Below are positions 43 through 48,843 of a stretch of 49,747 nucleotides of DNA, piece after piece (within the stretch, counting starts at the first letter, position 1; every line of letters begins with the position of its first letter). Source of the stretch: an uncultured Ruminococcus sp. (GTDB lineage: Bacteria; Bacillota; Clostridia; Monoglobales; Monoglobaceae); NCBI GenBank assembly GCA_902797885.1, contig CADBUP010000180.1, positions 1 through 49,747 on the forward strand, given 5' to 3'. The notes below the pieces were generated by a model, which saw only the letters and a list, made by a program, of their open reading frames with translations, was not told the origin of the DNA and did no database searches. The translations under genes were made by a program, and so were the position numbers.

Positions 43-1923
43 TTAACTTTGGTCAGCTTTGTTGTGGTTTTGTTCATACCCTTCTGCTCTAACTCCTTTC
101 CCTTTATAAATATGACCTGTTCCATCGACCTTCGGCGAGATATCCATGCCTCCTGTCCGGTTATTTACATCACTATCATCTTCCGTTTCTTCTGACGGAA
201 CAATTTTCTCTACCCTCTCTATTTCAGCAATCAATTCATCCTTACCTGCATAAGACACCTTTCTGACCTCCTGCTTGTCATTCTCATATTCCTTATCAAG
301 GTCAATCCCCCATTTGAAAAACAAATCAAGTTTTGTTTTCATAGGATTGACGCCTGTCTTTGCAATGATGAAATGAAATCTTGGCATAGTCTTCAGTTCA
401 TCAACCGTCATGAGTGACCTTGACATCATTTGCAATGACTTTGAGCCGTCATTCTTTGATTGTGTAACAGATCCTGACAGTATAGTCTGTTCTCCGAGGT
501 TTTTACTCATAACCTCTGCGGTTTCGGAGTTTGGTGCAAATCCGCCAAAGACTGTAAGCTGACAGTTATCTATGATTATACTCGCACCTTCTTTACCATA
601 GTTTTTTTCAAGCTGTGCAAGCGACTGAATTATTGCTATGATACTTATCCTTCTGGAACGTCCTGCAGAAAACATCATCTCGGCTGAATCAATTTTAGGG
701 ATAGTACCAATCTCATCAAGATAGAACATAACTCTGTTTTTAAGTTTACCGCCTGTTTCATCCGCTACCGCAAGCATTTCACGATAGAGTTGCTGAACGA
801 TAAGAGATACGAGAAAGTATTTTGTATTATCTTCCTCCGGCATAATCAGGAACAATGCAGATTTGGTATTACAGAACTTCTCCGCATCAATCGCTGTGTC
901 AAAACACAAAATCTGTTCCATTTCGCTATCAAGAAAAGCATTCAATCTTGACAGTGCTGTTGATAATACAGACTGCATCGCTTGCTCTGATGTGTTAAGA
1001 GCCGCACCTGCAAACCATTTCGCTTTATGGGTATCAGGAAGCCTTTGCATCAGCATTTGGAACTGCGTTTGTTTTCCTTGTTTGCTTGTACTTGTTTTTG
1101 ATGTACTTGCTGATGCCGGTGCTAACAAGTCCTGAATCATTTTAAATACAGAGATTATATGCCTTTCTTCCGGCTTACAATATTCTGCTATCAAGAGTAT
1201 TACTGATGTCAACAGACCTTCAGCAGCATCATAGAAGAATGCGTTTTGTCCATAGTTTGAGGCATCACCCTCACCTGAATATATAATTGTCTTAGCAGTA
1301 ATCTTTGCATACTTTTCTGCCTTTGCTTTGTCTGAGAGCAGTTTGCTTTTTTTATATAAATCGAAATACTTATTCACCATTGACAGCATATTAAAACTAT
1401 CACTGCGGATAGGATTTCTAAGATCTATTACCGCCACATTGTATCCGTAGTCTTTGCATATGTTACCGTAACTTCTTGCGAGATCACCTTTGGTGTCTGT
1501 TGACAGGAAACTCATTCCCGATGCACAGGCATATTCAAGATTTGGGTATAGAAAGCAAGCAGTTTTACCTACACCTGCCGCACCGATCATCAATGTATGT
1601 ACATCGCCTGAGTCTATGACGCCGTATAGTTTTCCATGTATTTTCCTTGTTCCTACGACTGTACCTTGAGGCAAATTTTTATCTCCTTTTTCTTTTCGCC
1701 ATCGTTTCGGCTCATACGGAACAAGATTGTATGTCTTTCTTATTTCTTTCTCTGTTGCAAATCTCGCATTACCATGCTGACCATGACCGACCTTTTTATT
1801 CTTTATACTATTGATTGAATACACATTGGACCATACTGTCAAAAAGCCTATGATTGCAAACATAGCCGTGCCAATGAGTATCAGTGTTATTACAGGATTA
1901 TTCAAACTCTCACTTCCCTTCAC
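43..1923 (-). CDS. virD4: VirD4/TraG-type coupling protein (T4CP)
   Basis: Coupling ATPase that links the relaxase-DNA complex to the type IV secretion channel at the inner membrane. The 626-residue protein has one N-terminal membrane segment (about residues 10-31), a Walker A motif GAAGVGKT at 114-121 and a Walker B VMFYLDE at 397-403, the normal TraG/TraD layout and length. Its GTG start overlaps the TGA of the upstream primase-like gene (GTGA), which suggests translational coupling. A TTG at codon 7 (1905) lies at better spacing behind AAGGGAAG and could be the true start. It ends in KADQS and lacks the Met-rich tail found on many neighbours. It would be the obvious receptor for such a tail if the tail is a secretion signal. 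The family call is firm; the exact start is not. Confidence 0.95.
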   Translation of the reverse strand: MKGSESLNNPVITLILIGTAMFAIIGFLTVWSNVYSINSIKNKKVGHGQHGNARFATEKEIRKTYNLVPYEPKRWRKEKGDKNLPQGTVVGTRKIHGKLYGVIDSGDVHTLMIGAAGVGKTACFLYPNLEYACASGMSFLSTDTKGDLARSYGNICKDYGYNVAVIDLRNPIRSDSFNMLSMVNKYFDLYKKSKLLSDKAKAEKYAKITAKTIIYSGEGDASNYGQNAFFYDAAEGLLTSVILLIAEYCKPEERHIISVFKMIQDLLAPASASTSKTSTSKQGKQTQFQMLMQRLPDTHKAKWFAGAALNTSEQAMQSVLSTALSRLNAFLDSEMEQILCFDTAIDAEKFCNTKSALFLIMPEEDNTKYFLVSLIVQQLYREMLAVADETGGKLKNRVMFYLDEIGTIPKIDSAEMMFSAGRSRRISIIAIIQSLAQLEKNYGKEGASIIIDNCQLTVFGGFAPNSETAEVMSKNLGEQTILSGSVTQSKNDGSKSLQMMSRSLMTVDELKTMPRFHFIIAKTGVNPMKTKLDLFFKWGIDLDKEYENDKQEVRKVSYAGKDELIAEIERVEKIVPSEETEDDSDVNNRTGGMDISPKVDGTGHIYKGKGVRAEGYEQNHNKADQS

Positions 1924-2834
1924 AATTTTATATCAAAATTTTCTGTTTCTTCTTGTTCTGATTTAGAAATCAAATCCTCGTTCCAATCCTTATTCTCCGG
2001 AACAATCCTATCCCATTCTATTCCTTTTTCGGTCAATTCTTCGCCAATTCTCTTTACGGTTTTATCTCCTGCCTCGTCTTTATCCACGCATAGATGTACT
2101 CTTTGAATATTCCCATTATTTTTCATAATATTTGTGAGTGCATCTATCGCAACACCGCCGAGACAGACATAGCTTTGCTCCTGCCAATTCTCCTTGTGCA
2201 TAGTGATATATGACAGCATATCTATCGGGGCTTCAAATACATATACATCAGATCCGTTCCCTTCATGACGAAAACAGAATTGCTTATCGCTCCCATCTAT
2301 ATCCTGAAAGAAACGATTCCCGGGTATTGTACTTCTTAGATGCATTTGCTTCATCTCGCCCTGTTCATCGTATCCGCAAAAGGCTACATTGTGATACTCT
2401 TCCGTTTCCTGTATCTTCTTCTCATCTACGAAGTGCTGAACTATATCCGCATCTATTTTACGAGTCTTAACCAGATACGCATATGTTCTGTGCATATTCT
2501 TTGACAGCTTAGGCATTTTGAACTCCGGCTTTTCATAGCTTTGCTTTTCTACCTGAGTGAACTCTGCTCCCTCTTCGCCATTGAGCAGATATTTAACGCT
2601 TTCAATGAAGTCCATACCATAGAAGTGTTCCATGAATTGTATTGGTCCGCCGCCTACACCCCTGCTGTGTCTGAACCATTTATTTCCGCATATAACCGTG
2701 CTGTCATATCGCATCCAGCGATGTACTATACCCTCTCTTTTAAGTTTCTCACCTTGACCTCGGAGCATATTCACAAGGTCAATATTGCTTGCCCTATCAA
2801 GCTGTTCATCTGTAAACCTTTTCAGAATAATCAC
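1920..2834 (-). CDS. DUF3991/Toprim primase-like protein
   Basis: Primase-like protein of 304 residues carried next to the relaxase in many clostridial elements. The N-terminal half matches DUF3991 (conserved DLVNMLRGQG and a GGGPIQF region). The C-terminal half is a Toprim fold, with the catalytic Glu in VFEAPID and the acidic pair in CVDKDEAG. The likely role is priming complementary-strand synthesis after transfer. The GTG start overlaps the relaxase stop (GTGA), and its own stop overlaps the start of virD4, so the three genes form one translationally coupled chain. The C-terminus is FDIKL, which keeps hydrophobic-x-hydrophobic spacing like the element's Met-rich tails but has no Met. I regard that as only a weak resemblance. 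Confidence 0.85.
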   Translation of the reverse strand: MIILKRFTDEQLDRASNIDLVNMLRGQGEKLKREGIVHRWMRYDSTVICGNKWFRHSRGVGGGPIQFMEHFYGMDFIESVKYLLNGEEGAEFTQVEKQSYEKPEFKMPKLSKNMHRTYAYLVKTRKIDADIVQHFVDEKKIQETEEYHNVAFCGYDEQGEMKQMHLRSTIPGNRFFQDIDGSDKQFCFRHEGNGSDVYVFEAPIDMLSYITMHKENWQEQSYVCLGGVAIDALTNIMKNNGNIQRVHLCVDKDEAGDKTVKRIGEELTEKGIEWDRIVPENKDWNEDLISKSEQEETENFDIKL

Positions 2835-4216
2835 CCCATTTTTATACCAAGTCTTTGTTTCTTTATTGCAAGTTCCTTGCGTTCTTTTGAGTCAACAATA
2901 GTCTTATTGTGACCATCAATTTGCTTTTCTGCATCGTTATCAATGATTGATGCGAGTCGGCAAAAGAGATTAAGAGCCGATGCAGCAACACCGGGATAGA
3001 TTTCCCTTGGCTGACTTGTTTCTTGAGTTTGCTCATGCGTTTCGCCACTTTCCTCTTCAGGTGATTCCTCAGCATCCTCCGCCTCTTCTGTGGCAATAAT
3101 AATGCGGTCATCACAAAGCTTTACAGCTTCTTTAATGACCGCATTTCTGATATTTTTGAAATTATCATTTTCCCATAGCTTCGGAAACTCGACTTCCTTG
3201 TCGTTATATATCTCAACAATTTTCTTCTGCAATGCACACCACTCTGCATATAAATTTTGAATATCAGAGTCCTCTGCCATAGCTTTAACGATATTATCAA
3301 CTTCTCTTTTAAGAGATTTCGGGAGGTAACCGTAAGTTCTTTTCCCTTTTACATCTATGAGTTTACGAGAGAGATTGATGAGCATGTCACATACAGGCGA
3401 GTCCGAATAATCCTTTTCCCGAATTTTATCAGCCAACTCTTTTAGTCTCTTTTTGCTTTCTTCAGAGATTTTATCTCGTTGTTTTGACTTCTCTGAATAG
3501 ATTTCATACATTTCATTTTTGAATACGTCGTTTGCAATAATAGATTTGAATTTTTCTATACCCTGCTCCGACAGATGTCCTCGGTTTGAGTCTTTTGCAT
3601 ATATAACCATGTGAATATGAGGGTGATGACCTTCGTTATGAAACGCCGCATACCATCGAAAATTTTCTTGAGGAATATTGAAAATTTCAGCAATTTTAAC
3701 TTGATTTGCACGAATTAAATCTCGCCATGCAGATGCATTATCGTATCCGAGCCGTGCCGCATCTTCTCTGCGTAGAGATATAATCGGAGTCCATATAACT
3801 GCTTTTTGATTTCCAATTTCATCTTTTACTTTTGAAATATCCACCGCATATTCATTCCCAAACAACCCATGCTTACCTGTCTTTTCAACATTCGGTCTTG
3901 TGGAAATATAGCTAAGATAAGTTTCACGGCTTTCAAATATTTGCGGATTACTTTCTGCTGCTACACTGATAAATGCAGAGGCATTTTTTATAGTTGGATT
4001 CTCAATATAGTCCTGATACTCATATGCATCTTTTGCGTCCGGACAGAGATTTAATATCTCTTCTATATACTCCATTTGGTTTTTAGACGGCTTGCCTACA
4101 TAAACTTTTTGATTGACGCTTTTATCAACGCCCTCACGTTTTGCTATATAATTAATGAGTCCTGCACTTGCAGATCTGCCTTTGATATTAGGCACTTTTA
4201 TAATAATCTTTGACAT
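2831..4216 (-). CDS. MobP3-family relaxase
   Basis: Relaxase that should nick oriT and lead the DNA strand into the recipient. The 461-residue protein carries the three-histidine metal site in HNEGHHPHIHM (residues 193-203), and the N-terminal region (SKIIIKVPNIKG, INYIAKREGV, and a ROW-type ISLRREDAARLGYDN block near 147-161) matches MobP3 proteins of clostridial elements. The middle is helical and charged; a Glu-rich low-complexity stretch lies near 380-400. The ATG overlaps the end of the upstream ribbon-helix-helix-like gene. The last residues are LGIKMG, matching the G-[M/I]-x-M pattern at the end of about 20 other proteins here. Because a relaxase is transferred through the channel, this is the best internal support for reading the tail as a transfer signal. 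Confidence 0.93.
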   Translation of the reverse strand: MSKIIIKVPNIKGRSASAGLINYIAKREGVDKSVNQKVYVGKPSKNQMEYIEEILNLCPDAKDAYEYQDYIENPTIKNASAFISVAAESNPQIFESRETYLSYISTRPNVEKTGKHGLFGNEYAVDISKVKDEIGNQKAVIWTPIISLRREDAARLGYDNASAWRDLIRANQVKIAEIFNIPQENFRWYAAFHNEGHHPHIHMVIYAKDSNRGHLSEQGIEKFKSIIANDVFKNEMYEIYSEKSKQRDKISEESKKRLKELADKIREKDYSDSPVCDMLINLSRKLIDVKGKRTYGYLPKSLKREVDNIVKAMAEDSDIQNLYAEWCALQKKIVEIYNDKEVEFPKLWENDNFKNIRNAVIKEAVKLCDDRIIIATEEAEDAEESPEEESGETHEQTQETSQPREIYPGVAASALNLFCRLASIIDNDAEKQIDGHNKTIVDSKERKELAIKKQRLGIKMG

Positions 4217-5481: not shown

Positions 5482-6480
5482 TTATCCCATACTCATACCG
5501 CCCATCTCATCTGAGGTCTGTTCGATATCCTGATTGCATTTTCGGAGCAGTTCATCATAAGAATTTACATACTGCTCGATTGTCATCATCTCTCCGGTGT
5601 AGTTATAATTATCTTCTGTCATAGTGATTCCATCTGCTGTCGTGTAGGTGTGTCCGTCAAAATCCTGCGTCATATCAAACGGTTCTTTACAAATTACAGT
5701 TGCCCAATGATTCACCATCACATGATCCTTCAACTCTACCATATTACCTTGGCAGTCATCATCATGACGGATGTCATATCTAAACATTCCATCAGGAATA
5801 TCTGCATGTTTTAACCTCTCATTCGTGAATAAGACAGGCTTATTAAATATTTCTACAACCTCAAACGACTCACTTGCTGTTCGTGTGGTTGTCTCTGTGG
5901 TCTGTTCAGTATTCTCTTGCGAGAGTTCGTGTGAAGAATAACTCTCTGTTTGAACAACATCGACCATATAGCCTGTATCTTCAAGACTTTCATACCATTT
6001 CAGAACAATTACCTCAATTCCGATTTCTTCATATGGCTGTTCATCAATAATCAGATTGAATTCTCCATCGAAGTTGATCTCATTGGTATCTACGTCTCTC
6101 GGAATATCTAAATCAATTTTCCCTTCGCTATATGCTTGCAAGATATTTTCAACTGTCTGCAGTTCTGATACTGACAGTTTTTGAAACAAGTAATTTTTAT
6201 CTTCACACTCACTTATACACTTGAACCTTCCGAGGCTGTCTTTAAATGCTTTTCTTATCTCTGCCCTATATATAAATTCAGGCTTTGCATCAAACTCTTC
6301 CTGAGTCATACCAAGAAGTTCAAGTGCCTTATCTTTGATGCAACGAGCCACTTCCATCGCTTCTTCGGACTTAATATAGTGCAAAGATAAATCACCGAAG
6401 TATGCAGTGGTAGCTTCGTGTTGCGGCACATTCAGCACTTCTTCATACGTCGCCACCAAATCAATATATTTTGTATCCAT
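5482..6480 (-). CDS. LPD28-like polyvalent accessory protein with Met-rich tail
   Basis: A 332-residue acidic protein. The first half (about 1-190) is helical and not recognised. A Thr/Glu/Ser-rich linker near 190-210 leads into a C-terminal domain with KPVLFTNERLKHADIPDGMF, YDIRHDDD, and DHVMVNHWATVICKEPFDM, the pattern of the large-polyvalent-protein domain LPD28. Such domains occur in phage and conjugative-element proteins thought to act in the newly invaded host. It ends DEMGGMSMG, one of the clearest copies of the shared tail. A clear SD (AAGGAG) precedes the ATG. Function is inferred only by domain association. Confidence 0.75.
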   Translation of the reverse strand: MDTKYIDLVATYEEVLNVPQHEATTAYFGDLSLHYIKSEEAMEVARCIKDKALELLGMTQEEFDAKPEFIYRAEIRKAFKDSLGRFKCISECEDKNYLFQKLSVSELQTVENILQAYSEGKIDLDIPRDVDTNEINFDGEFNLIIDEQPYEEIGIEVIVLKWYESLEDTGYMVDVVQTESYSSHELSQENTEQTTETTTRTASESFEVVEIFNKPVLFTNERLKHADIPDGMFRYDIRHDDDCQGNMVELKDHVMVNHWATVICKEPFDMTQDFDGHTYTTADGITMTEDNYNYTGEMMTIEQYVNSYDELLRKCNQDIEQTSDEMGGMSMG

Positions 6481-6494: not shown

Positions 6495-7589
6495 TTACAT
6501 AATAGTAAGTGCTTTTTCAAAAGCACCTATGCCACTGAAAAAACTTCCAAGCCTGATATTCTCAAACAGATACGGCATAGCTTCATACAGTTCTTTGTAT
6601 ATAGCAACAAGGACATTCACCACGACAGAATTTCCTGTTTGTTTATAAACTTGAGCATCACTTACAAACGAACCATGCATAGCAATATAGTCCTCATCTT
6701 CAAATCCCATGAGTCTGATATTTTCAATCGGATATAGCCTCCGTATGTGATTATTATACAAAACTGCTGTATGCGGATTCCCTGCCCGTAGAGTCGGCGC
6801 AAGTTTAATTCCGACCTTGCAATCCTGAAATCCGCTTTTACATTTACACTGATACATTGCCTTGTCAGAGTGTATAATCTCTTCGAGATTTTCCTCATAT
6901 ACTTTTCTCACCGATGGCTTGATTCTTTCATCAATGAATACACCTTTTATATGGCTTTCATAGAATGTGTCTGCTACATTTCCCAAAAGGAAATCCCCAA
7001 GCTGTGCTTCATACGAAAACTGCTCGGGGAATTTAAATTTTCCGTTGTCTAATTCTTTTTTTATGATTACCATATACAATCGTTCTCTGTTTTGAGGTAT
7101 TCCGAAGTCCTTAGCATTCAAGGCTTCCCAATAAACATTGTATCCAATCTCTTTCAGTTCTTCAACGAACAGGTCAAACATTTCCCGAAAACTCAAACTC
7201 AATATGTTCTTTACATTTTCGTAGATTGCAACATCCGGTTTTTTGTATTCGAGAATACGGAGCCATTCCACAAGAAGCGATGAGCGAGTTTTGGATATAT
7301 CATCACCGCCACAATGTGGACAGAACCGCCTCTTTTCGGCTTTTACTGTCAGTGGGTTATATTCTTTGCCGCACGAATTACAATGCCACACAGCGCCCTT
7401 TCTTGCCCCTGAAACGGAGAAGTCTTGACATGGAGTTCCTCCCACCATGAAGTTGAACGGTTTTAGCTTTGTTTCGTCAACCAATTCAATATCTCCGAGA
7501 TTTTTTTCAGGCTCAGCCTCATGGATTGCACAGTAGCTTTTTACGGCTTCTGCATCTATTTCGCAAAAGTTGGTGAGTTCATATTTCAT
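6495..7589 (-). CDS. circularly permuted C5-cytosine DNA methyltransferase
   Basis: DNA cytosine methylase of 364 residues with motifs in permuted order. The protein begins with motif II (FCEID, 8-12), then the catalytic PCQ (53-55, Cys54), ENV (124-126), QNRER (166-170) and QTGNSVVVN near the end. The SAM-binding motif I, LGSFFSGIGAFEKAL, sits at residues 347-361 of the C-terminus. In ordinary enzymes motif I directly precedes motif II. The ATG has an ideal GGAGG five nt upstream and the stop follows motif I, so this is a real permutation and not a misassembled boundary. Two CxxC pairs (70/73, 90/93) between PCQ and ENV suggest an inserted zinc knuckle. No restriction enzyme is adjacent. The probable role is self-protection of the element from host restriction. 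Confidence 0.9.
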   Translation of the reverse strand: MKYELTNFCEIDAEAVKSYCAIHEAEPEKNLGDIELVDETKLKPFNFMVGGTPCQDFSVSGARKGAVWHCNSCGKEYNPLTVKAEKRRFCPHCGGDDISKTRSSLLVEWLRILEYKKPDVAIYENVKNILSLSFREMFDLFVEELKEIGYNVYWEALNAKDFGIPQNRERLYMVIIKKELDNGKFKFPEQFSYEAQLGDFLLGNVADTFYESHIKGVFIDERIKPSVRKVYEENLEEIIHSDKAMYQCKCKSGFQDCKVGIKLAPTLRAGNPHTAVLYNNHIRRLYPIENIRLMGFEDEDYIAMHGSFVSDAQVYKQTGNSVVVNVLVAIYKELYEAMPYLFENIRLGSFFSGIGAFEKALTIM

Positions 7590-14459: not shown

Positions 14460-14900
14460 CTATGTCATACTCATACCCTCATCTATACCCATATAAAAAT
14501 CCTGATATACCGATACAAAGTCTTCCACTGAGTCTCTGAGTTCCTTCATATCTTGCGGTGTCGGATGATATACATACCAATCAAGCTTGTCTCCGCTATG
14601 CCAAAGATGCGGCGAAACACCTTCTTTGAAGTTTGGATTTGTTGTATGTTTCTTGCCCCATAACTCTTCAAACCGAATCACATTGCTATCTACGACTCCT
14701 TCGTTTCGTTTAATAACTTCCAACTTCAAAGCAGAATAATGATTCGAAATGTCTCTTGATATATACTGTGCTTTTAACCTTAACTCATCATCAATCTTCC
14801 CATAAAATGCTCTGCCCACATATTTCATACTGCCTTCTTCAAAGCATCCCATATCATCAAATATTCGCCTCAGTTCATTTTCAAATGTCGTTCCTTTCAT
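14460..14900 (-). CDS. tailed accessory protein of unknown function, 146 aa
   Basis: A soluble 146-residue protein set between two channel genes (DUF3852 and TrbL). It is predicted alpha/beta with a conserved-looking GDKLDWYVYHPTPQDMKELR segment. I do not recognise a family. It ends YMGIDEGMSMT, a clear instance of the shared tail. Its placement in the middle of the channel genes, while being soluble and tailed, suggests that the tailed genes are distributed along the operon and are not one inserted block. Confidence 0.7.
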   Translation of the reverse strand: MKGTTFENELRRIFDDMGCFEEGSMKYVGRAFYGKIDDELRLKAQYISRDISNHYSALKLEVIKRNEGVVDSNVIRFEELWGKKHTTNPNFKEGVSPHLWHSGDKLDWYVYHPTPQDMKELRDSVEDFVSVYQDFYMGIDEGMSMT

Positions 14901-17478: not shown

Positions 17479-18339
17479 TCACATTCCTCCCATCTGCATA
17501 CCCATATTCTGATCATCCACCATTCTGTTTTCGAAATCGTCTTGATTTTCCATAAAGTAGTCATCGCTTCCATTCCAGAATGATACGCAGATATATCCAT
17601 CGTCTATCTTGATTTCCCTTTGCTCAAAGCCTTCGCCGAATCCATCGGCAGCCTGACCTATCAGTTCATCAACCCAATCCTTTTCTTCCTCTGGAGTGAA
17701 TTTTTCTGTCAGATGTGTATGGATTACTCCATATAGAGTTCCGTTGACTTCCTTGACATCCCATATTGCTGATACAAGCTTATCTTTTGCTGTTTCACTT
17801 CCGTCAAAGTAATATGCCATGTCATTCAGGTCTTCATTCTGCTCTGCCATAAGCCTTTCTCTTATTGTCTCTTCATTTGACAGTGCATACCCATTATCAA
17901 CCTCGAAGTAATCGACACAGTCATCATCCATCATTTGAATGGTAAGCGGACAATAGTAGTCTACCGATACATTTATCAGCTCGCTTGTTCTTTTATTAAG
18001 TTCTTCCATCAACTCTTCCGGTGATGCAAACTGCTCATGCAGGATATCGCCTTCCATATCTTCAAGTATCGAAAGCCGTGTGTTTTCAAGTTTGTATATA
18101 CAAGCATTTACATCATCCAAGCTATAATCCTCATTAAATAGCTTTATGATACTGTTTCCAAAGTCCGAATCCGAACTCAGCTTCACTTTATAAACCGAAT
18201 CATCTGCATCAGTAAGCTTTATGTTTTCAGGCTTTTCTCTGATGCCGATATCCCATATCTTTTGGTGTAAGATATAACGGTCAGTCGGCAGTTCTATAAC
18301 TACCGACTCATTTCCATTCTGAATATTTACATTTACCAT
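17479..18339 (-). CDS. ArdA-like N-terminus fused to GEGFEQ domain, tailed
   Basis: A 286-residue acidic protein. The first 120 residues (VIELPTDRYILHQKIWDIGI, IKLTDADDSVY, DDVNACIYKLENTRLSILED) resemble the ArdA antirestriction domain that mimics B-form DNA. The C-terminal part (LTEKFTPEEEKDWVDELIGQ, DGFGEGFEQREI, ICVSFWNGSDDYF) is the same domain as in the protein at 7657-8841. It ends MGMQMGGM, a double copy of the shared tail. If active, it would bind or block restriction enzymes. The fusion is read from sequence; the activity is inferred from family resemblance. Confidence 0.7.
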   Translation of the reverse strand: MVNVNIQNGNESVVIELPTDRYILHQKIWDIGIREKPENIKLTDADDSVYKVKLSSDSDFGNSIIKLFNEDYSLDDVNACIYKLENTRLSILEDMEGDILHEQFASPEELMEELNKRTSELINVSVDYYCPLTIQMMDDDCVDYFEVDNGYALSNEETIRERLMAEQNEDLNDMAYYFDGSETAKDKLVSAIWDVKEVNGTLYGVIHTHLTEKFTPEEEKDWVDELIGQAADGFGEGFEQREIKIDDGYICVSFWNGSDDYFMENQDDFENRMVDDQNMGMQMGGM

Positions 18340-18894: not shown

Positions 18895-19356
18895 TTACAT
18901 CGTCATGTCCATAGTTTCATCACAGGACTGTTCATCAAGTATTTTTTGCTTTGCCAATTCAAGGCCTCTCTTTAGTGCCGGATTGGTTGCAATGTCTTTC
19001 GGAGTGTACCCAAGTGCGTCGAGTGTATATTCATCATCCATTGTGTAACCGTATTCATGATTACACAGTTCCGAATAGAACATATCAAGTATAAACCCTT
19101 CGCCTGTGGTATCTTCTGCAATTGCATTGCTAAGTTCCTCTGTGGTAGCCTTTTGCCATGCTTTGATTTTAGGTGCATCTGTTTTTAAATAGTATCCACC
19201 TGCACTCGACAGGCTGTAAAGCTTGTCTGTCTGATTTTCCTTTAAACCGAACTCCTGCATCATCTTTTTAAATTGGTCATTGCCATATGCAAACTTGATG
19301 GGCAGCTTGTTGAACTCCTCTTGTTGCCTTTGTCGCATTTCATCATACTTGTTCAC
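18895..19356 (-). CDS. DUF7659-like protein, tailed
   Basis: About 153 residues (EMRQRQQEEFNKLPIKFAYG; FKKMMQEFGLKENQTDKLY; EEFSELCNHEYGYT-like region), matching the DUF7659 pattern of element-borne proteins. It ends CDETMDMTM, with Met in the shared spacing. The chosen start is a GTG 7 nt behind GGGAG; an ATG six codons upstream (19374) with a weaker SD is the alternative. It is soluble with no known function. Confidence 0.65.
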   Translation of the reverse strand: MNKYDEMRQRQQEEFNKLPIKFAYGNDQFKKMMQEFGLKENQTDKLYSLSSAGGYYLKTDAPKIKAWQKATTEELSNAIAEDTTGEGFILDMFYSELCNHEYGYTMDDEYTLDALGYTPKDIATNPALKRGLELAKQKILDEQSCDETMDMTM

Positions 19357-19402
19357 CGCTTCACTCCCTTTCATAAAGTACCTTTCGGCTATAGTTTTTG
19401 TT

Positions 19403-21034: not shown

Positions 21035-21553
21035 CTAAAACTTAGGCACATACTCTGCTTTTACCTTCATTGTGAACTGTATGGGAACGAGTTCCCCGCC
21101 GCCAAACCTGACAGGGATTTCGACATCCACCATAACCGTTCCATTTAGGTTTTTTGAAGCATCTCCTTGAGCAAAGTCTGTGTTTTCAAAGTCAAGCACA
21201 AGATTGGATATGCTAAACTCTTTAACCGTTCCGTTGTACTTGGTATGTTTGTCGCCATCTTCGGTTAAGGCTAAGAGTTCATCAAGCCGGGCATATATAT
21301 TACCCGTGTCTATGGTTTCGGTAAATGATGAATCTATGTATGTATAACCTCCGCTATATCCTTCACGCAATTGGCTGTATGCATCGTCATAGTTTGCTAC
21401 CACAATGGAAACCGTTGCCGACTGCACCGCATTCTTTATGCCGTTGCAGATAACGAGCATTTGGATGTATTCAAAGATTACACACATTATGAGGATTAGT
21501 GACATACAAACTGCCACTGCGAGAACAGTGGCATTGCCTTTATTATTCATCAT
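21035..21553 (-). CDS. TadE/TadF-like pseudopilin
   Basis: A 172-residue protein with a short cytoplasmic start (MMNNKGNATVLAVAV), one hydrophobic helix (about 8-32) and an extracytoplasmic domain. This is the TadE/F minor pseudopilin layout, next to a second similar gene and the rest of the Tad cluster. GAGGTG precedes the ATG and it overlaps the upstream gene by 4 nt. The N-terminal NKGNATV resembles the processing region of Tad pseudopilins. Confidence 0.7.
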   Translation of the reverse strand: MMNNKGNATVLAVAVCMSLILIMCVIFEYIQMLVICNGIKNAVQSATVSIVVANYDDAYSQLREGYSGGYTYIDSSFTETIDTGNIYARLDELLALTEDGDKHTKYNGTVKEFSISNLVLDFENTDFAQGDASKNLNGTVMVDVEIPVRFGGGELVPIQFTMKVKAEYVPKF

Positions 21554-21942
21554 TTATGGTACACCTCACTTTTGCCTGTAGCCTTTGACCGAATAGTGAC
21601 AGGGAATGATCCAAATCCGCCAAAGCCTATATCGTATTCCATTGTCAGATCCACAGTGAATTCTTCATTCAGTTGTATATTGCCTGTTTTGGACCATGTA
21701 ACTGTCGGACTTAAACCAAGCCTTTCTTCTAAGACAATCTCACGGCTATCCGTTTCGCTTCCAATCCTGCCGCAGATTTCTGCCTCTCTGCAGAGTTCTT
21801 GCGCAAATGTATCAAGCTGCGATTTTGCCACATATACAGGGAACACACTGACTGCCAATGCTATGACCATCATTACTGATAGAATGATTACCACCACATC
21901 TATGTATCCTGAACCACGATTTCTAAATATTCTCTTCAGCAT
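21550..21942 (-). CDS. DUF4320/TadE-like pseudopilin
   Basis: A 130-residue protein: RNRGSGYIDVVVIILSVMMV, then a hydrophobic helix, then KSQLDTFAQELCREAEICGR, the pattern of DUF4320 proteins associated with Tad-like systems. It probably works as a minor pilin. Its ATG overlaps the end of the tailed gene upstream, whose final GGT GGG ATG codons also serve as the SD. Confidence 0.7.
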   Translation of the reverse strand: MLKRIFRNRGSGYIDVVVIILSVMMVIALAVSVFPVYVAKSQLDTFAQELCREAEICGRIGSETDSREIVLEERLGLSPTVTWSKTGNIQLNEEFTVDLTMEYDIGFGGFGSFPVTIRSKATGKSEVYHK

Positions 21943-22943
21943 AAATCCATCCCACCTTGCTGTTCTTGCTCCTCATCTTCATTCTGATTGTTTAATCCTT
22001 GACACGATACATCAAAGAATCCATTTTCTGCAAGTTCGGGGATTTTACTGTAGTCACCGCCACCAGCAAGGTATTTCGCAGCCTCAATCAGTTCATTTTC
22101 TAAAATCAATGTGTCCTTTTCCAAATCATAAAGCTGTTGCAGAATGGCTTTTCCTTGATTATCATTAATCACATTTAATGCCCTGACAAATCCTGCATAC
22201 GGATCATCTTCAAATTCCTGTCCTTGGTCCTCGAGAGTTCTGAAAAAATCAAGCCACCTCATTGTCCTCGTAAAATCCGGATTTGGAACAATATTTAAGA
22301 TTGTATTTATGGCTTCGTGTCTCCATTTTGATTCATCTATTACTCTGTCATAATCAAGTTTGTGAGGCAAAGTAAATATGTCATGATTATCAATATATTC
22401 TTCAGTTTCACTTGTTACATGTATAAGAGATGAGCTTCCTTTTGTCGCTGCTCGTATAACCTCTATAGGTTTTTTAAACTGCAATAAACTCTTTGCCAAA
22501 TGATTACTGATATTAGAGGAAATATTGATCATGTATTCAAACACTTCTTTCTCAACCTCTGCAACTTCATCCGGCTTTGAAGTTTCATCCAATTCCTCAC
22601 CCATTCTTTTGAGCAATTCATTTACCTTTTTCGAACAGCCTGTTGCATAAAGTTTGTTATCCGTTATGTCCTCACATATAATCATAAATGCGCTGTGCAT
22701 TTCTTCTTCCTGCGGGCTATATCGGTTTGCAATGAGATCAATCGCATGCTCTATTTTCATAAAATGCAGCATTTGTTCATCGGATAGAGGTTCATTATCG
22801 TGTAAATATGTATATACCGATTGAAAATCTGCTATATACCTTGATTCTTCTGCAATTTCCTCCGGATCATATCCGCTTATCATTTCCAAACAGTCCTCAT
22901 ATTCCGCTTCGATTTTTTCACGAAACATATCCTTTAATGCCAT
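21936..22943 (-). CDS. tailed accessory protein, DUF3848-like N-terminus, paralogue of next gene
   Basis: A 335-residue acidic protein. The first 80 residues (KIEAEYEDCLEMISGYDPEE, then EPLSDEQMLHFMKIEHAI) resemble DUF3848. The rest aligns along its length with the protein at 22958-23962, for example HDIFTLPHKLDYDRV against HDIYTLPFELNYSKV, and NIVPNPDFTRTMRWL against HIIPNPSFKSSMGWL. It ends EEQEQQGGMDLC, a variant of the shared tail. The gene sits inside the Tad cluster between tadC and the pseudopilins, yet is soluble. Its function is unknown. Confidence 0.7.
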   Translation of the reverse strand: MALKDMFREKIEAEYEDCLEMISGYDPEEIAEESRYIADFQSVYTYLHDNEPLSDEQMLHFMKIEHAIDLIANRYSPQEEEMHSAFMIICEDITDNKLYATGCSKKVNELLKRMGEELDETSKPDEVAEVEKEVFEYMINISSNISNHLAKSLLQFKKPIEVIRAATKGSSSLIHVTSETEEYIDNHDIFTLPHKLDYDRVIDESKWRHEAINTILNIVPNPDFTRTMRWLDFFRTLEDQGQEFEDDPYAGFVRALNVINDNQGKAILQQLYDLEKDTLILENELIEAAKYLAGGGDYSKIPELAENGFFDVSCQGLNNQNEDEEQEQQGGMDLC

Positions 22944-22957
22944 TTATTCCACCTCCC

Positions 22958-23962
22958 TCACATATTCATATCCATTACTTCACTCTGTTCCAATTGCTTT
23001 TGCAGTTCCTCATAGCTATGCAGAAAATATCCCGATTGTGCCATTTCGCTTACTTCGGTTGTATCATTTCCGTCTTCGAGATATTCGGCTATTGTATAGA
23101 GCGAATCTTCACATATATCCCAATCTTTTGTCTCACACCCGAAATCGTAAATCTTCTGCAAAATATCCATTCCGAACTCTCCCCGGATTCTTTCTAACAT
23201 AGATATAAAATCCGTATATGGATTTTCCGGACGCATGGATTCATCCCCATATTCCACAGCAATATTCCTGAAATAACTGAGCCAGCCCATTGACGACTTG
23301 AAACTCGGGTTTGGGATAATATGCAGAATCTCTTCAAGTGCCTCATGCCTTTGCTTTGCTTCATTAGTAACTTTACTGTAATTAAGCTCAAAAGGCAGTG
23401 TATAAATGTCGTGGCTATTTACATACTCTACAGTATCTCTGATTGGGTTTAGTGAATGTTTATCACGCTGACCTACTGCCATTATGAGTTCCATTGGGTT
23501 TTTGAATTGCATCAATATCTCTGCATCTTCGTCTTTTATGTTATTAGTTACATTCAGCATCACATCGGAAACCTTTTCATTGAATATGTCATAAAAGAAT
23601 TTTGCAAAGCCCTCGCCGTCTTTTCTCTCAGGTGCTTCGTTTATGAAATCACACCACTGTCTGCAGGCTTCATCAATCGCCATATCGAAAATATTTTGTT
23701 TGCTAACATCATTCGCTACATCAGTTATATTTATTTTTTCGGCATCGAGATTCAGCTCTCCGTTATCCAATATAACCTTGTATCCAAAAATGTTTGTTAT
23801 CTCCTCTGCATCAAAAAGCCTTGCATCTTTTTCTGCATTTTCCTGGACTTTTGCGATTGCTTCCTTTTTATTTTCTCCTACAGACAATTCTTCACACTCA
23901 TATAGCCCCGAAAGATCGCTTTTCCACTGCATATATGATACTTTATATAATTTCTTCATCAT
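22958..23962 (-). CDS. tailed accessory protein, paralogue of the preceding gene
   Basis: A 334-residue soluble protein with an N-terminal YKVSYMQWKSDLSGLYECEE region different from its paralogue, and a homologous C-terminal 200 residues. It ends QSEVMDMNM, the shared tail with Val in place of Gly. The start is one of two adjacent ATGs behind GGGGGTG. The pair probably arose by tandem duplication and has since diverged strongly. Confidence 0.7.
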   Translation of the reverse strand: MMKKLYKVSYMQWKSDLSGLYECEELSVGENKKEAIAKVQENAEKDARLFDAEEITNIFGYKVILDNGELNLDAEKINITDVANDVSKQNIFDMAIDEACRQWCDFINEAPERKDGEGFAKFFYDIFNEKVSDVMLNVTNNIKDEDAEILMQFKNPMELIMAVGQRDKHSLNPIRDTVEYVNSHDIYTLPFELNYSKVTNEAKQRHEALEEILHIIPNPSFKSSMGWLSYFRNIAVEYGDESMRPENPYTDFISMLERIRGEFGMDILQKIYDFGCETKDWDICEDSLYTIAEYLEDGNDTTEVSEMAQSGYFLHSYEELQKQLEQSEVMDMNM

Positions 23963-23971
23963 TAACACCCC

Positions 23972-24838
23972 CTAAAACATTACTCCTAAACTTTGAATCA
24001 CCTGAACTGCTATCACTATGAGGTAAGTGGCTATAAAGCACATCAGCATTATCATTGAAAATATACGGATTTTACCCGGTATTTTCTGTGCCTGTGCTTT
24101 CAGCTTACGAAGTTCAGCTTGCTTGAAATCGTGAGAGAGCATTTGAAAATACATTACTCCGTCATCGCCCCTTATTACAGATATCAAACCTCTGACAACG
24201 TCAGAAAGCATTGGCGAGTTCACTCTCGCTTCCCATCTCATCAGTGCTACCTCGTAACCGCCTGACCTCATATCTGCACAAGTAATGCTTATTTCATCAG
24301 CAAGGGCAGGAGTTGTTGACTTCTTGAATGACTCCAAGATTGACAGTACATCCCGGCTCGACTTCAGTTCCTGCTCTATGGTCGATACGAGTCGTAACAG
24401 TTCGGTTTCAATTTCCTCCCTCTTCTCTTGCATCTGATTGTCTGCCTTTTGGTATTCTTTGAAATACACCAAAACTGCAAGTACAAGCACCACTATTGCA
24501 ATCAGCGGAAATATCATTATGCACGGTATAACGAGCAAACCGACCAACAATGCCTTGATTATTGCATGCGCCTGATAGCATTCAGGTGTCATCTTTATTC
24601 CGGCAGCTTGAAGCGTGGCTGATAGCCTGTTCTTTTTATATCTGTCCATCGGTATGAATTTGGAAAGTTTTATGCTCAAATCCATTATCAATGCCTCAAT
24701 GGTCTGTGTCAGTTTTCTGTCCGACCTGCCGAGATTCATAATTGCTTTTGATGATTTCAAATAAGGTATTTTTAGTCTGTCTGCTGCTATGAAATATAAT
24801 CCAAAGGACAGACCTATTAAAAGTATAAAAATCCTCAT
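23972..24838 (-). CDS. tadC: TadC-like pilus platform protein
   Basis: A 288-residue inner-membrane protein of the T2SSF family. A hydrophobic N-terminus, a central pair of membrane helices (about 90-125), a cytoplasmic domain with ELLRLVSTIEQELKSSRDVL, and a C-terminal helix are visible, as in TadC. It partners TadB as the platform of the Flp pilus. Its ATG overlaps the TGA of the small Cys-rich gene (ATGA). The C-terminal LGVMF is the end of a membrane helix and not the shared tail. Confidence 0.8.
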   Translation of the reverse strand: MRIFILLIGLSFGLYFIAADRLKIPYLKSSKAIMNLGRSDRKLTQTIEALIMDLSIKLSKFIPMDRYKKNRLSATLQAAGIKMTPECYQAHAIIKALLVGLLVIPCIMIFPLIAIVVLVLAVLVYFKEYQKADNQMQEKREEIETELLRLVSTIEQELKSSRDVLSILESFKKSTTPALADEISITCADMRSGGYEVALMRWEARVNSPMLSDVVRGLISVIRGDDGVMYFQMLSHDFKQAELRKLKAQAQKIPGKIRIFSMIMLMCFIATYLIVIAVQVIQSLGVMF

Positions 24839-24987: not shown

Positions 24988-24992
24988 CTCGC

Positions 24993-29746: not shown

Positions 29747-30433
29747 TTACATACTGATTTTAAAGGTTTCGACTTGAAATTCTTCCTGCTGGGCAGTCGG
29801 TTCAGCTTGGAATATAGGTTCTTCCTGTTTCTTCATCTCATGTTCTTCTTTAGGTTTGGGCATTTCCGGCTTTTTGATTTCATCAATCTTTTTCTCCTTG
29901 CTTTGAGTTTCTTCAATCTGATGCATATCAAGTTTTATAAACCCTCTGCTGTCTACATAATAGAAGTTGCTCCCTGAATCGTCATAAAGTTCGATGATAT
30001 CTGACATTGACAAGGCATATCCTGTGTATTCGCTCGGCAAGTTATCCCGATTAAACAAATCATAAATCTCTTCAAGATTATTTGTGCCAACATCCCCATC
30101 ATATACCATGCGATAGTTTGCGATATCAGGCTCTCCGTAACCTTTATTAATAAGGTCTTCGTAGCCTATATATTTCATCCGCATATCTATCCCCGGTTTA
30201 AGTTGATGGATTCTGCATGATTTCAGCATAATGCTATCCTGAATATCGCCCTTGATTAGCCTGTCATATACTCCTTTTTCCCAAACTACTTCAAAGCCAT
30301 GTTGTTCCTTTAGATATTCTGACACCTCATTCCTTTTGAACATCTCATCAATTACGGCAGTTTTATACTTTACGAATCCTGCTCGGTTACCGTAACATTC
30401 AACAATTCCTTCTCTTGTAATATTGATTTTCAT
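29747..30433 (-). CDS. YodL-domain protein
   Basis: A 228-residue protein whose middle (CRIHQLKPGIDMRMKYIGYE, then PDIANYRMVYDGDV, LEEIYDLFNRDNLPSEYTGY and NFYYVDSRGFIKL) is the YodL domain common on clostridial elements. A Lys/Glu/Pro-rich linker follows (KKPEMPKPKEEHEMKK). It ends VETFKISM, a weak version of the shared tail: I-x-M without Gly. Its function is unknown. Confidence 0.78.
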   Translation of the reverse strand: MKINITREGIVECYGNRAGFVKYKTAVIDEMFKRNEVSEYLKEQHGFEVVWEKGVYDRLIKGDIQDSIMLKSCRIHQLKPGIDMRMKYIGYEDLINKGYGEPDIANYRMVYDGDVGTNNLEEIYDLFNRDNLPSEYTGYALSMSDIIELYDDSGSNFYYVDSRGFIKLDMHQIEETQSKEKKIDEIKKPEMPKPKEEHEMKKQEEPIFQAEPTAQQEEFQVETFKISM

Positions 30434-39701: not shown

Positions 39702-39718
39702 TATTCTTTTACCTCCGA

Positions 39719-43550: not shown

Positions 43551-44438
43551 TTACATACTATCCATACTCATTCCCTGCGTCTGCTCTTCATTTCCTCTTG
43601 CATAGTTTATGAGCTCCAAGACATCCTCCGGGGCATCTTCTATATCCGTGTGTATGTCGTTACCGTATATGGGTGTGTACCAATAATCATAACTTCCTAT
43701 ATCTTTCAGATAAACGAAATTAGGATCATTTCTTTGTGTACTTTCAAAACTCAAAAATCCTTTTTCTGTTATAAAATCAGTTCCCCAATGCTCACCTGAT
43801 GAATCCATATCAACATATACAAGTCCTATGTGCAATTCTCCTGTATCCCTCGACTTACATACCGCAGGAAGATGGATGAACTCTTCATCACCGGTCAAAT
43901 TATCGACATCATATGTTCCAAAAGTCTTTGCAAATACATCATGCATTCTCTTCAGAAATTCCTTTGCCTCAATCTTATCCGCCGTTTTCAGTGATTCGAC
44001 TATTGCCTTGAAATTCGGCTCATTATTCCCAAAGCCTAAGTTGAGGTTGTTGACAAACATTTCATCTTTTCCGATTACATTGTCGCTCAAAGAAATATGT
44101 GTCGAATATTCTTCCTTGCTGATTTCGTGAGGCTTTCCGTAAACAGCGTTATAGTACTGCATCTGATATGGTTTTATATCACTAAGCTTCTCACCGTCAT
44201 CACTGCTTGCAAGAAAGAATGTACCGCTTATTATTGCCCCACCTACCCATCTGTTTGGCATTGCATTTTCCTCGCTTTTAATATCGTTATACACGATTAC
44301 CGTGTTATCATCAAGAGGCTTGGCGGTTATATCTCCTCCCACAAGTTCTCTGTATGCACCTTCGTCCTTGTTTATAATTTCCACATGCGGTTCTTGTCCC
44401 GGTTCAAACACCAGAACCTTCATTCTGTTCTTCTCCAT
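43551..44438 (-). CDS. DUF3846-like protein, tailed
   Basis: A 295-residue protein whose start (MKVLVFEPGQEPHVEIINKD, then GGDITAKPLDDNTVIVYND, with MPNRWVGGAIISGTFFLAS) matches DUF3846. The following 200 residues are acidic and not recognised. It ends QTQGMSMDSM, a strong copy of the shared tail, immediately before a terminator, so here the tail codons do not serve as an SD for any gene. The start is an ATG 12 nt behind GGAGG; a second ATG five codons on is possible. Confidence 0.75.
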   Translation of the reverse strand: MEKNRMKVLVFEPGQEPHVEIINKDEGAYRELVGGDITAKPLDDNTVIVYNDIKSEENAMPNRWVGGAIISGTFFLASSDDGEKLSDIKPYQMQYYNAVYGKPHEISKEEYSTHISLSDNVIGKDEMFVNNLNLGFGNNEPNFKAIVESLKTADKIEAKEFLKRMHDVFAKTFGTYDVDNLTGDEEFIHLPAVCKSRDTGELHIGLVYVDMDSSGEHWGTDFITEKGFLSFESTQRNDPNFVYLKDIGSYDYWYTPIYGNDIHTDIEDAPEDVLELINYARGNEEQTQGMSMDSM

Positions 44439-44559
44439 TGAGATATTTCTCCTCCTTCTTTGACCCTTGCCCTGATACAATAACGCAGCACATTGTTGCC
44501 ACACTTACCACTGAACCGAAAAGCACACCACCTGCAAAAGTTAAAATATGACTTATCAT
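44404..44559 (-). CDS. DUF3789-like 51-aa membrane peptide
   Basis: A 51-codon gene starting directly after the TAA of the upstream tailed gene; its SD is GGGAGG from the codons of that gene's GGM ending. The product has one membrane helix (FAGGVLFGSVVSVATMCCVI) and a short charged end, as in DUF3789. Its 3' end overlaps the DUF3846-like gene by 35 bp in another frame. Confidence 0.75.
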   Translation of the reverse strand: MISHILTFAGGVLFGSVVSVATMCCVIVSGQGSKKEEKYLNGEEQNEGSGV

Positions 44560-46443: not shown

Positions 46444-46791
46444 TTATATATTCATTGTAGGTTCTTCATGACTTTCGTCATTGCCATCATTTATCCATGT
46501 ATCATACAAGTCCGCATCACAGTATCCTGCAGGCACATGTGAAAATTCTGCCAATCGTTCAGGCTCTACATCCTCACATTCAATCTGTAATCCGTATCCG
46601 CCTACAAATATCCGATTTACCTTTGCATTCATTACACCTTCCCAATGTTCTTTACCGCTTTGGGTGAGTGTGTTATCATCCAATTCCACAATAGTCGAAA
46701 GTTCAATTTCCTCGTACTTGTGTGTCAGATGCACATCTTCAAAACTCATGTATTTAAGCAATTCTCCAAGTGATATTTTATTTTCAGGCAT
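46444..46791 (-). CDS. tailed small protein of unknown function, 115 aa
   Basis: An acidic 115-residue protein (ALLEYMSFEDVHL-type start: LGELLKYMSFEDVHLTHKYE; WEGVMNAKVNRIFVGGYGLQ; FSHVPAGYCDADLYDTWIN) similar in style to conserved proteins of clostridial elements, with no known function. It ends SHEEPTMNI, a variant tail (M-x-I). The gene overlaps the upstream one by 8 bp. Confidence 0.65.
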   Translation of the reverse strand: MPENKISLGELLKYMSFEDVHLTHKYEEIELSTIVELDDNTLTQSGKEHWEGVMNAKVNRIFVGGYGLQIECEDVEPERLAEFSHVPAGYCDADLYDTWINDGNDESHEEPTMNI

Positions 46792-47174: not shown

Positions 47175-47215
47175 AAAAAAAGGCGATACCTTCTTGTTTT
47201 CAGAAAGTACCGCCT
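47175..47215 (-). terminator. intrinsic terminator after the RHH-like gene
   Basis: Stem 47181-47185/47211-47215 continued by 3 and 4 more pairs across single mismatches, followed on the minus strand by seven T. The TAG stop of the upstream gene lies at the base of the stem. Its AGGCGGT start resembles the two hairpins near 43.4-43.5 kb. Confidence 0.7.
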
Positions 47216-47627
47216 AAATATTCATATCAGGCCCTATATCAAAGCCTGCGTCCTGCTCTATATTGCATATTTCATTGTATCGCTGATTTGCATACTGTGC
47301 CGGGGATATTTCCACCAATGCTCTTGCAGCGGCACCATATGATGGGAGTCCGTTTTCATTTTTAAATTCTTTCTGTGATGGAACTCGGCCGTTTTGCAGT
47401 ATAAAATCATCAATCGCTTTTTCCACCTCCGGTCTATCCCATCCTTTCGGACCTGTTATTTCAGGTTCTGCTACCTCCTGTTCTTGTTTCATGCTCTGTG
47501 CGAGATTTGCTCTTATGATCTCTGCCACATACTGTTTCTTTGATAAGCCATTCTTCTTTACAAAGTCATCCAACTCATCAAATAAGGTATTGTCAATCTC
47601 AACTGCCAATATTCGTTTTTCAGACAT
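47214..47627 (-). CDS. ribbon-helix-helix-like protein, tailed
   Basis: A 137-residue protein with an N-terminal segment (LAVEIDNTLFDELDDFVKKN, then GLSKKQYVAEIIRANL) that fits a ribbon-helix-helix DNA-binding fold. The C-terminal half has a small helical domain (RPEVEKAIDDFILQNGRVPS). It ends GFDIGPDMNI, a variant tail. The start is the ATG 7 nt behind AGGAG; a longer reading lacks an SD. Confidence 0.7.
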   Translation of the reverse strand: MSEKRILAVEIDNTLFDELDDFVKKNGLSKKQYVAEIIRANLAQSMKQEQEVAEPEITGPKGWDRPEVEKAIDDFILQNGRVPSQKEFKNENGLPSYGAAARALVEISPAQYANQRYNEICNIEQDAGFDIGPDMNI

Positions 47628-47640
47628 TTCTTTTCTCCTT

Positions 47641-48843
47641 TCACATTCCGGACATCTGCATGCCCTGTTCTTCGCAAAGTTCGTCATCCCTTAAAATTTC
47701 TTCCAAGGTAATATAATCTTTAATTGCAACATAGATGTTTCCGTCAAGATATTTTCCCTGCCATTCCATATCTATATCCTCGCCATATTTCTCGAAATCA
47801 AAATAATCTTCCAATTCGATATGTATGTTGTATTCGGGGTTTGCATTTATTACAGCCTCTCCAAGTTCGTATGCATCGCTGACCTCGCCAAATACTGCAA
47901 ATGAGTCAATGTTGTCAATTAACTTTACAATGGCATCACTGCTGCTGTCCTCAGCATATTCAATCACGGGAACAATATGTGTAAGCTTTGTATCGTCTAA
48001 TTGAACGAGTTTATTCACCACCATATTGAGTTTATCAACACCTTCATTTTGGCAAATATTTTCGAGAATATTTTGTAATTTGTTGTATTGCATCTCTACG
48101 CTATTAAGCTCCTCCGAATGAGCAACACTGAAACCTGTATTATCAATTATACATTTGCATTGCGATACATCTCTCGCTCCCATTCTGAATGCTGCCCTTT
48201 CAAGTGCCATTCTTGTATCGGGAAGATTTACATAGTTTTTATTCCCCTGATAACTCATTTCAACACATACAGGCTGACTATCATAAAATTGAAATGAAGG
48301 CAAGGATTCACGAGTACACGGCTCATAATACTCCAAATCACTGTTTGTATATATATTGCCGTATCTCGTTATTCTTCCGTTCCCTGATTCTATCAGTTTC
48401 TTTCCGATAGCTTCAAAATCAATATTATTGATATCCTCTGCAGATATGCCTCCATCTCTGGTCATTATATGCAGTTTGCCTACGGCTTTTATATCGCTCA
48501 TATCTTTAACCAAAGTATAATAGTGCATATTATCTGTAAGGTTTATCATATCATATAAATCGGTAATTCCGTTCAGCTCTCTGACTGCTTCAAATTTATT
48601 AACCTCATCACTTGTAAGTGAACAAAGCTTTTTAGCTAATAAGTTTACAGCATCCAGATCGTGCGACTTACCTTCAAGGCATTTTAACGGTTCATAATCA
48701 GTTTCCACGATATGAATATCTATTTTCGATTTTTCTTCATCGGGAACATGTAAGTCTGCAAGTTTTGCAAATAAAGTTAAATTCGTACATGGGAACTCAA
48801 TATTAACGTTTGTGTCATTATATTTAATGTTACAGCTAAACAT
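47641..48843 (-). CDS. ArdA-like protein, tailed
   Basis: A 400-residue acidic protein with ArdA-type features: NVNIEFPCTNLTLFAKLADL at the start, AVNLLAKKLCSLTSDEVNKF, two further domain-like repeats (YVNLPDTRMALERAAFRMGA; NMVVNKLVQLDDTKLTHIVP) and the ArdA-style EDYFDFEKYGEDIDMEW block. It should mimic DNA and block restriction. It ends EEQGMQMSGM, a strong shared tail. GGGAGGTG precedes the ATG. Confidence 0.78.
   Translation of the reverse strand: MFSCNIKYNDTNVNIEFPCTNLTLFAKLADLHVPDEEKSKIDIHIVETDYEPLKCLEGKSHDLDAVNLLAKKLCSLTSDEVNKFEAVRELNGITDLYDMINLTDNMHYYTLVKDMSDIKAVGKLHIMTRDGGISAEDINNIDFEAIGKKLIESGNGRITRYGNIYTNSDLEYYEPCTRESLPSFQFYDSQPVCVEMSYQGNKNYVNLPDTRMALERAAFRMGARDVSQCKCIIDNTGFSVAHSEELNSVEMQYNKLQNILENICQNEGVDKLNMVVNKLVQLDDTKLTHIVPVIEYAEDSSSDAIVKLIDNIDSFAVFGEVSDAYELGEAVINANPEYNIHIELEDYFDFEKYGEDIDMEWQGKYLDGNIYVAIKDYITLEEILRDDELCEEQGMQMSGM

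What the first reader, a model, noticed from the sequence alone, without database searches (positions are those of the whole stretch)
2831..4216. The relaxase itself ends in a version of the tail, pointing to a type IV secretion signal
The MobP3 relaxase ends LGIKMG, close to GGMSMG and NGISMN of the accessory proteins. A relaxase is known to cross the channel, and C-terminal signals recognised by the VirD4 coupling protein are established for other type IV systems (for example VirE2 and VirF of Agrobacterium). If the tail is such a signal, the element would send ArdA, SpoVG, LPD28 and other proteins into the recipient together with the DNA, before its genes are expressed there. This would fit the proposal that polyvalent proteins act on arrival. 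The primase-like protein ends FDIKL, a possible weak form. The link is an inference.
Basis: inference. Interest (0 to 1): 0.85.

Follow-up and report, generated by a model that had tools for sequence, protein, structure and literature searches.

The report
Shared protein tails on conjugative element
Many unrelated proteins carried by this self-transferring DNA element end in the same short methionine-rich tail, probably an address label for export into the receiving cell, but the DNA-nicking relaxase singled out here carries at best a chance or vestigial copy of that label.

Summary
The relaxase (2831-4216, minus strand; MobP3/MobL) does end LGIKMG, but this is weak evidence for the tail. It is the end of a C-terminal motif of MobL relaxases, D-x-K-(x7)-K-K-x-x-x-G, whose two K and G were invariant in 49 aligned relatives. 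The final MG* (ATGGGGTGA) overlaps the primase start. It lacks the acidic/Gln linker and M-x-M; a classifier trained on accessory tails scores it 0.17. The tail on accessory proteins is real: 11/55 window ORFs, 0/467 ORFs elsewhere in the genome, 107/819 genes in MobL elements, 0/337 genes around other relaxases. It tracks the element, not the protein family: amidoligase, SpoVG and ArdA carry it on MobL elements, not elsewhere. VirD4, VirB4, VirB6, PrgI and NlpC/P60 lack it. Relaxases of some sister elements carry a full tail (HEQEQTPGMTMTM, WGGMTMKGW); most do not, although their accessory proteins do. The neighbouring Toprim primase carries a clear tail in many relatives, so FDIKL is plausibly a weak form. 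Best reading: the tail is a C-terminal recruitment signal for this VirD4-type secretion system, used by accessory proteins and the primase; the relaxase here relies mainly on something else. Protein transfer is not shown.

The parts
2831..4216 (-). MobP3/MobL relaxase, 461 aa
   Evidence: PF18555 1e-31; NF041499 MobP3 2e-102; invariant H193, H198, H200, H202 in 20 relatives
2846..2893 (-). C-terminal core motif of the relaxase, residues 442-457 (DSKERKELAIKKQRLG)
   Evidence: two K and G invariant in 49/49 aligned relatives; predicted as a separate helix 443-455; same module at the end of a PF03432 relaxase
2834..2851 (-).
   Evidence: MG* = ATGGGGTGA overlaps the primase start
1920..2834 (-). 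DUF3991/Toprim primase-like protein, ends ETENFDIKL (weak tail; nearest relative L002 ends NEIKMEM)
   Evidence: PF13154, PF13155; 39 dereplicated relatives, many ending in M-x-M
43..1923 (-). VirD4-type coupling protein, CD1115 family, no tail
   Evidence: PF02534 1e-44; NF045973; only VirD4 found in the genome
4216..4620 (-). probable relaxosome auxiliary protein next to the relaxase, no tail
   Evidence: conserved next to MobL, 0/71 with tail; role inferred from position
5482..6480 (-). LPD28 protein with tail EMGGMSMG
   Evidence: PF18843
7657..8841 (-). DUF6329 protein with tail GMQGMSGMSGM
   Evidence: PF19854
9852..10907 (-). protein beside VirB4 with tail EQGMTLG
   Evidence: same position beside VirB4 as the tailed amidoligase of relatives
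14460..14900 (-). unknown protein with tail DEGMSMT
17479..18339 (-). unknown protein with tail GMQMGGM
18895..19374 (-). DUF7659 protein with tail ETMDMTM
   Evidence: PF24692
22958..23968 (-). unknown protein with tail VMDMNM
29747..30433 (-). YodL-domain protein with tail FKISM
   Evidence: PF14191
31824..33086 (-). ArdA protein with tail DEGYGGMTM
   Evidence: PF07275
33096..33401 (-). DUF4314 protein with tail ELNMGM
   Evidence: PF14192
39719..40459 (-). DUF3849 protein with tail ESGMELK
   Evidence: PF12960
40465..40899 (-). SpoVG protein with a linker of about 60 residues and tail GGPAMSM
   Evidence: PF04026
29468..29737 (-). second SpoVG of the element, without linker or tail (internal control)
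43551..44504 (-). DUF3846 protein with tail QGMSMDSM
   Evidence: PF12957
44560..45294 (-). unknown protein with tail EGMQMGGM
46444..46791 (-). unknown protein with tail EEPTMNI
47214..47687 (-). unknown protein with tail GPDMNI
47641..48843 (-). ArdA protein with tail EEQGMQMSGM
   Evidence: PF07275
48859..49533 (-). unknown protein with tail NNGISMN

Best explanation
The element is a MobP3 integrative conjugative element whose accessory proteins carry a portable C-terminal tail: a disordered acidic/Gln-rich linker followed by a short methionine-rich end (M-x-M or M-x-L). The tail most likely works as a recruitment signal for the element's own VirD4-type secretion system, so that ArdA, SpoVG, YodL, LPD28, the Toprim primase and others enter the recipient as ready-made proteins. 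The relaxase belongs to the same pathway, but in this element it ends in its own conserved C-terminal helix motif (D-x-K...K-K-x-x-x-G) and has no proper tail; some sister relaxases add the tail after that motif. Shown here: the tail, its tie to MobL elements, its absence from the machine, its presence on some sister relaxases, and selection at the protein level. Inferred: binding to VirD4 or an adaptor, and protein transfer.
For: Tail frequency: M-x-M in the last six residues in 11/55 window ORFs against 0/467 elsewhere in the genome; 107/819 genes in MobL loci against 0/337 genes around non-MobL relaxases. Specificity: VirD4 0/64, VirB4 0/53, NlpC/P60 0/55, PrgI-like 0/32 and 0/26, VirB6 0/12, auxiliary 0/71, against 42/47 for the protein beside VirB4. 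Matched families: amidoligase tails in T4SS context, none in 26 other ORFs; SpoVG 0/23 chromosomal copies; ArdA tailed on MobL-type elements, untailed on Tn916-like and MOBP elements. The window holds a tailed and an untailed SpoVG. Tails sit on Toprim primase and Fic proteins; SogL primase and FicT toxins are demonstrated conjugation substrates (PMC8406263). Sister relaxases carry full tails, with at least 6 changes forced on the tree. Ser codons TCN and AGY are both used and tails end before the next ribosome site. Polyvalent proteins had been proposed to be delivered with DNA (PMC5512222).
Against: No transfer or binding data. Relaxase tails do not co-vary with accessory tails: elements with TTY-ending or short relaxases keep PGLSMSM tails on accessory proteins. 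A distant MobP3 plasmid has neither motif nor tail. Tail carriers vary in strength. The motif was chosen after seeing the window, although it held in independent loci.
Confidence: 0.6

Rival explanations
1. One reading: LGIKMG is itself a working version of the shared tail, and the relaxase is recruited by it.
For: Top-five match to window tails reached by only 0.2% of background genes. The closest relative (63% identity) keeps LGIKMG exactly. Eight of 50 MobL relaxases in a tree carry methionine tails, among them the weak sister clade of the window relaxase.
Against: Most of the hexamer is the family core motif. In the same position short-type relatives end KQG, KHE, RN or RG. No acidic linker; classifier score 0.17. 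MG* overlaps the primase start.
Confidence: 0.15
2. The tail is a degron or stability tag: it lets a host protease or adaptor remove these proteins quickly after conjugation.
For: Short hydrophobic C-terminal ends after disordered linkers are a usual form of bacterial degron (general knowledge). Short-lived establishment proteins would benefit.
Against: The tail is restricted to one type of conjugative element across many hosts and absent from MOBP and Tn916-like elements carrying the same protein families. It appears on some relaxases.
Confidence: 0.15
3. The tail is a docking peptide for another element-encoded hub (a DNA-binding or replication protein), comparable to the tip of single-stranded DNA-binding protein, with no role in export.
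For: Acidic linker plus short hydrophobic tip resembles hub-binding tips in general form (general knowledge). Tailed proteins include DNA-related ones such as primase and ArdA.
Against: Tails also occur on Fic, amidoligase and AbiEii-type proteins with no evident DNA hub. The four DNA methylases of the window lack it.
Confidence: 0.15
4. The endings are a by-product of ribosome-binding sites or start codons of downstream genes.
For: True for the MG* of this relaxase, which overlaps the primase start.
Against: Accessory tails end before the downstream ribosome site; 46% of tailed genes have no downstream gene within 30 bases; synonymous Ser and Thr codons vary freely.
Confidence: 0.02

Closest known systems
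Legionella Dot/Icm C-terminal E-block signal
   Same: Glu-rich stretch near the C-terminus on many unrelated effectors of a type IV system (PMC10025392)
   Different: Here the end is methionine-rich, the system is a Gram-positive conjugative element, and translocation is untested
Agrobacterium VirE2/VirF C-terminal transport signal
   Same: Short C-terminal signal on proteins sent through a VirD4-dependent system
   Different: That signal depends on positive charge (title of Vergunst 2005, listed); the tails here are acidic/Gln-rich before the methionine end
F plasmid protein transfer and ColIb-P9 SogL primase transfer
   Same: Conjugation systems move maintenance proteins and a primase into recipients (PMC8406263); here a Toprim primase and maintenance-type proteins carry the tail
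   Different: No shared terminal tail is described there in the passages read
Polyvalent proteins of Tn1549-like and Tn5253-like elements
   Same: ArdA, YodL and primase domains on Firmicutes conjugative elements, proposed to be delivered with the DNA (PMC5512222)
   Different: No delivery signal was found in the passages searched; here most carriers are single or few-domain proteins
Relaxase translocation signals of MobA, TraI and TrwC
   Same: Signals on relaxases for their coupling proteins
   Different: Those are internal (PMC10025392); here the conserved MobL motif is at the extreme C-terminus and its role is unknown

Membership tests
MobP3/MobL relaxase | match to the curated family models above cut-off | tested here: met
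   PF18555 110.8 bits, cut-off 28.5; NF041499 343 bits, cut-off 150
MobP3/MobL relaxase | invariant metal-binding histidine motif | tested here: met
   H193, H198, H200, H202 invariant in 20 sequences (output lists them for alignment A1)
Shared methionine tail of MobL elements (as defined here) | M-x-M or M-x-L within the last six residues | tested here: not met
   relaxase ends LGIKMG: one methionine, no M-x-M/L
Shared methionine tail of MobL elements (as defined here) | acidic/Gln-rich linker just upstream | tested here: not met
   upstream is the basic helix KERKELAIKKQR; classifier 0.17
E-block type T4SS signal (for the accessory tails) | Glu-rich stretch close to the C-terminus | tested here: met
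   DE and QN counts upstream are positive predictors of the tail; for example EEEYQDEIETQDEGYGGMTM
E-block type T4SS signal (for the accessory tails) | signal needed for translocation through the system | not testable with these tools
   needs a mating assay
VirE2/VirF type T4SS signal | net positive charge of the C-terminal signal | tested here: not met
   accessory tails are acidic/Gln-rich
Protein substrate of a conjugative T4SS | presence in recipients after mating, dependent on VirD4 | not testable with these tools
   experiment

The most novel reading that the evidence does not exclude
Firmicutes MobP3 conjugative elements carry a portable, previously undescribed C-terminal export signal that sends dozens of unrelated proteins per element (ArdA, SpoVG, YodL, primase, Fic, amidoligase, AbiEii-like, and in some elements the relaxase) through VirD4 into the recipient. 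The tail would then predict the protein cargo of such elements from sequence alone.
Probability: 0.5. Interest if true: 0.9.

Novelty: new variant of a known kind. Interest (0 to 1): 0.72.

Why it matters
If the tail is an export signal, it would be a readable address label for protein cargo of Gram-positive conjugation, where I found no substrate signal described in the reviews read. It would make the proposal that polyvalent and anti-restriction proteins act on arrival directly testable, and would let effectors of unknown function be listed from sequence in gut Firmicutes elements.

Tried and rejected
Ribosome-site by-product: rejected for the accessory tails, kept as a partial explanation for the relaxase MG*. 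Co-variation of relaxase and accessory tails within elements: looked for and not found; TTY-type relaxases coexist with PGLSMSM accessory tails. Phage homologues as untailed controls: viral-contig scans gave no usable relatives, and the SpoVG hits in phage records were not followed up. Plasmid searches: a search with a long relaxase was swamped by repeat-domain hits; one with the window relaxase gave four records, of which the distant MobP3 plasmid CP141730 lacks both motif and tail. AlphaFold model of the relaxase: separate C-terminal helix 443-455, last residues low confidence; uninformative on binding.

Full report
What was checked. The relaxase lies at 2831-4216 on the minus strand and ends ...DSKERKELAIKKQRLGIKMG. 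It is a MobL relaxase by Pfam and MobP3 by NCBIfam. The VirD4 next to it belongs to the CD1115 family, and no other MobL or VirD4 was found in the genome.

Is LGIKMG a copy of the tail? Eighty relatives from GTDB genomes show that the MobL C-terminus has its own motif, D-x-K-L-x-R-K-I-x-E-K-K-x-A-x-G, with both lysines and the glycine invariant in 49 of 49 aligned sequences. The G of LGIKMG is that glycine; only KMG lies beyond the motif. What follows the motif varies by clade: KM, KMG, KQG or RN in short forms; HARDDHEQTMSL; HAPDDHEQKFTTY; HKPDDHEEQGISMR; and in L255 HKADDHEQEQTPGMTMTM. The window relaxase is of the short kind. Its MG* is encoded by ATGGGGTGA, which overlaps the GTG start of the primase gene. 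Scored against window tails, LGIKMG is matched or exceeded by 2.1% of background genes on best match and 0.2% on the top-five mean. A classifier trained on accessory tails gives it 0.17, and none of 287 secretion-machine and relaxosome-auxiliary proteins passes 0.5.

Is the accessory tail real? Yes. M-x-M within the last six residues occurs in 11 of 55 window ORFs and in none of 467 ORFs from 585 kb of the same genome (Fisher 7e-12). In MobL loci it occurs in 107 of 819 genes, against 0 of 337 genes around non-MobL relaxases. It is absent from VirD4, VirB4, VirB6, PrgI-like, NlpC/P60 and auxiliary families and near-universal (42 of 47) in the family beside VirB4, which is an Amidoligase_2 protein. 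Thirty-six of 78 loci carry tails on at least two unrelated families. The loci are not all independent: the TMSL relaxase group in particular is a set of close relatives.

Does the tail follow the family or the element? The element. Amidoligase_2 copies beside a type IV system end AFTMRM, FSMGM, FSMTLGT, FSMSMNQ or PAFFMT; 26 amidoligase ORFs elsewhere in the same class have no such end. Of SpoVG proteins, 23 chromosomal copies have none, while the window carries one untailed SpoVG and one with an added linker of about 60 residues and GGPAMSM. Single-domain ArdA of Tn916-like loci has no tail and ArdA on a MOBP element ends KKDLQAAM, but tandem-domain ArdA on MobL-type elements ends in QQMGGI, TQKMGGM, FQMGGM or NMTMGEM. 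The four DNA methylases of the window lack the tail.

Selection acts on the protein. Serine in M-S-M is coded by TCA, TCT, TCC, TCG, AGT and AGC, and in the window the ribosome-binding sites of the next genes lie after the stop codons.

Primase. The Toprim protein directly downstream of the relaxase ends FDIKL here, but NEIKMEM in the closest relative and NFSMTM, FEMRMA, QVMTM or GLTMKMN in others. SogL primase and FicT toxins are demonstrated natural conjugation substrates (PMC8406263); a Fic protein with a tail-like end is among the relatives (L043, LSDFTQSM).

Relaxases with real tails. Eight of 50 relaxases in a tree of the N-terminal domain carry methionine tails, with at least six changes forced by well-supported branches. 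Thirty-four of 54 loci with tailed accessory proteins have a relaxase without one. A PF03432 relaxase (L313, L351) ends with the same core module, DSKTLRKEKEKKIALGQKEDDHEDEQTYQQIMY, and another (L314) ends KKKLAIGQKADDHSGHDFEMKM. The C-terminal module is therefore shared across relaxase families, which suggests a function of its own.

Interpretation. The most economical account is a C-terminal recruitment signal for the MobL-type VirD4 system, of the general kind of the Legionella E-block, used by accessory proteins and the primase, and by the relaxase only in some elements. Degron and hub-docking rivals remain open. Nothing here shows protein transfer. Iyer et al. 2017 proposed that polyvalent proteins of Tn1549-like elements are delivered with the DNA (PMC5512222); I found no signal described there or in the reviews searched, within the limits of an open-access library.

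Noticed in passing
6495-7589: C5 cytosine methylase that looks circularly permuted: the PCQ motif lies near the N-terminus and a motif-I-like FFSGIGAFEKAL at the C-terminus; PF00145 matches in two stretches.
   Followed up: partly
21035-28822: A Tad-type pilus gene set (T2SSE ATPase, ParA-like, RcpC/CpaB, T2SSF) lies inside the conjugative element; similar-looking sets appear in related elements L253 and L256 (not annotated there).
   Followed up: no
34356-39785: Surface protein of 1809 aa with SLH and Ig-like domains on the element.
   Followed up: no
L313 (456-aa ORF), L314 (466-aa ORF): PF03432 relaxases that share the C-terminal core module of MobL relaxases, one followed by FEMKM.
   Followed up: partly
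L011, L013, L019, L032 (cluster 9): A family beside the tailed amidoligase ends in a different shared tail, LFGMKWW or LFGQKWW, and in some members GGMNL; possibly an alternative form of the signal.
   Followed up: no
L335, L333: In a MOBP element type, Toprim and neighbouring proteins end in acidic EEEMEL-like ends, possibly an analogous but different tail.
   Followed up: no
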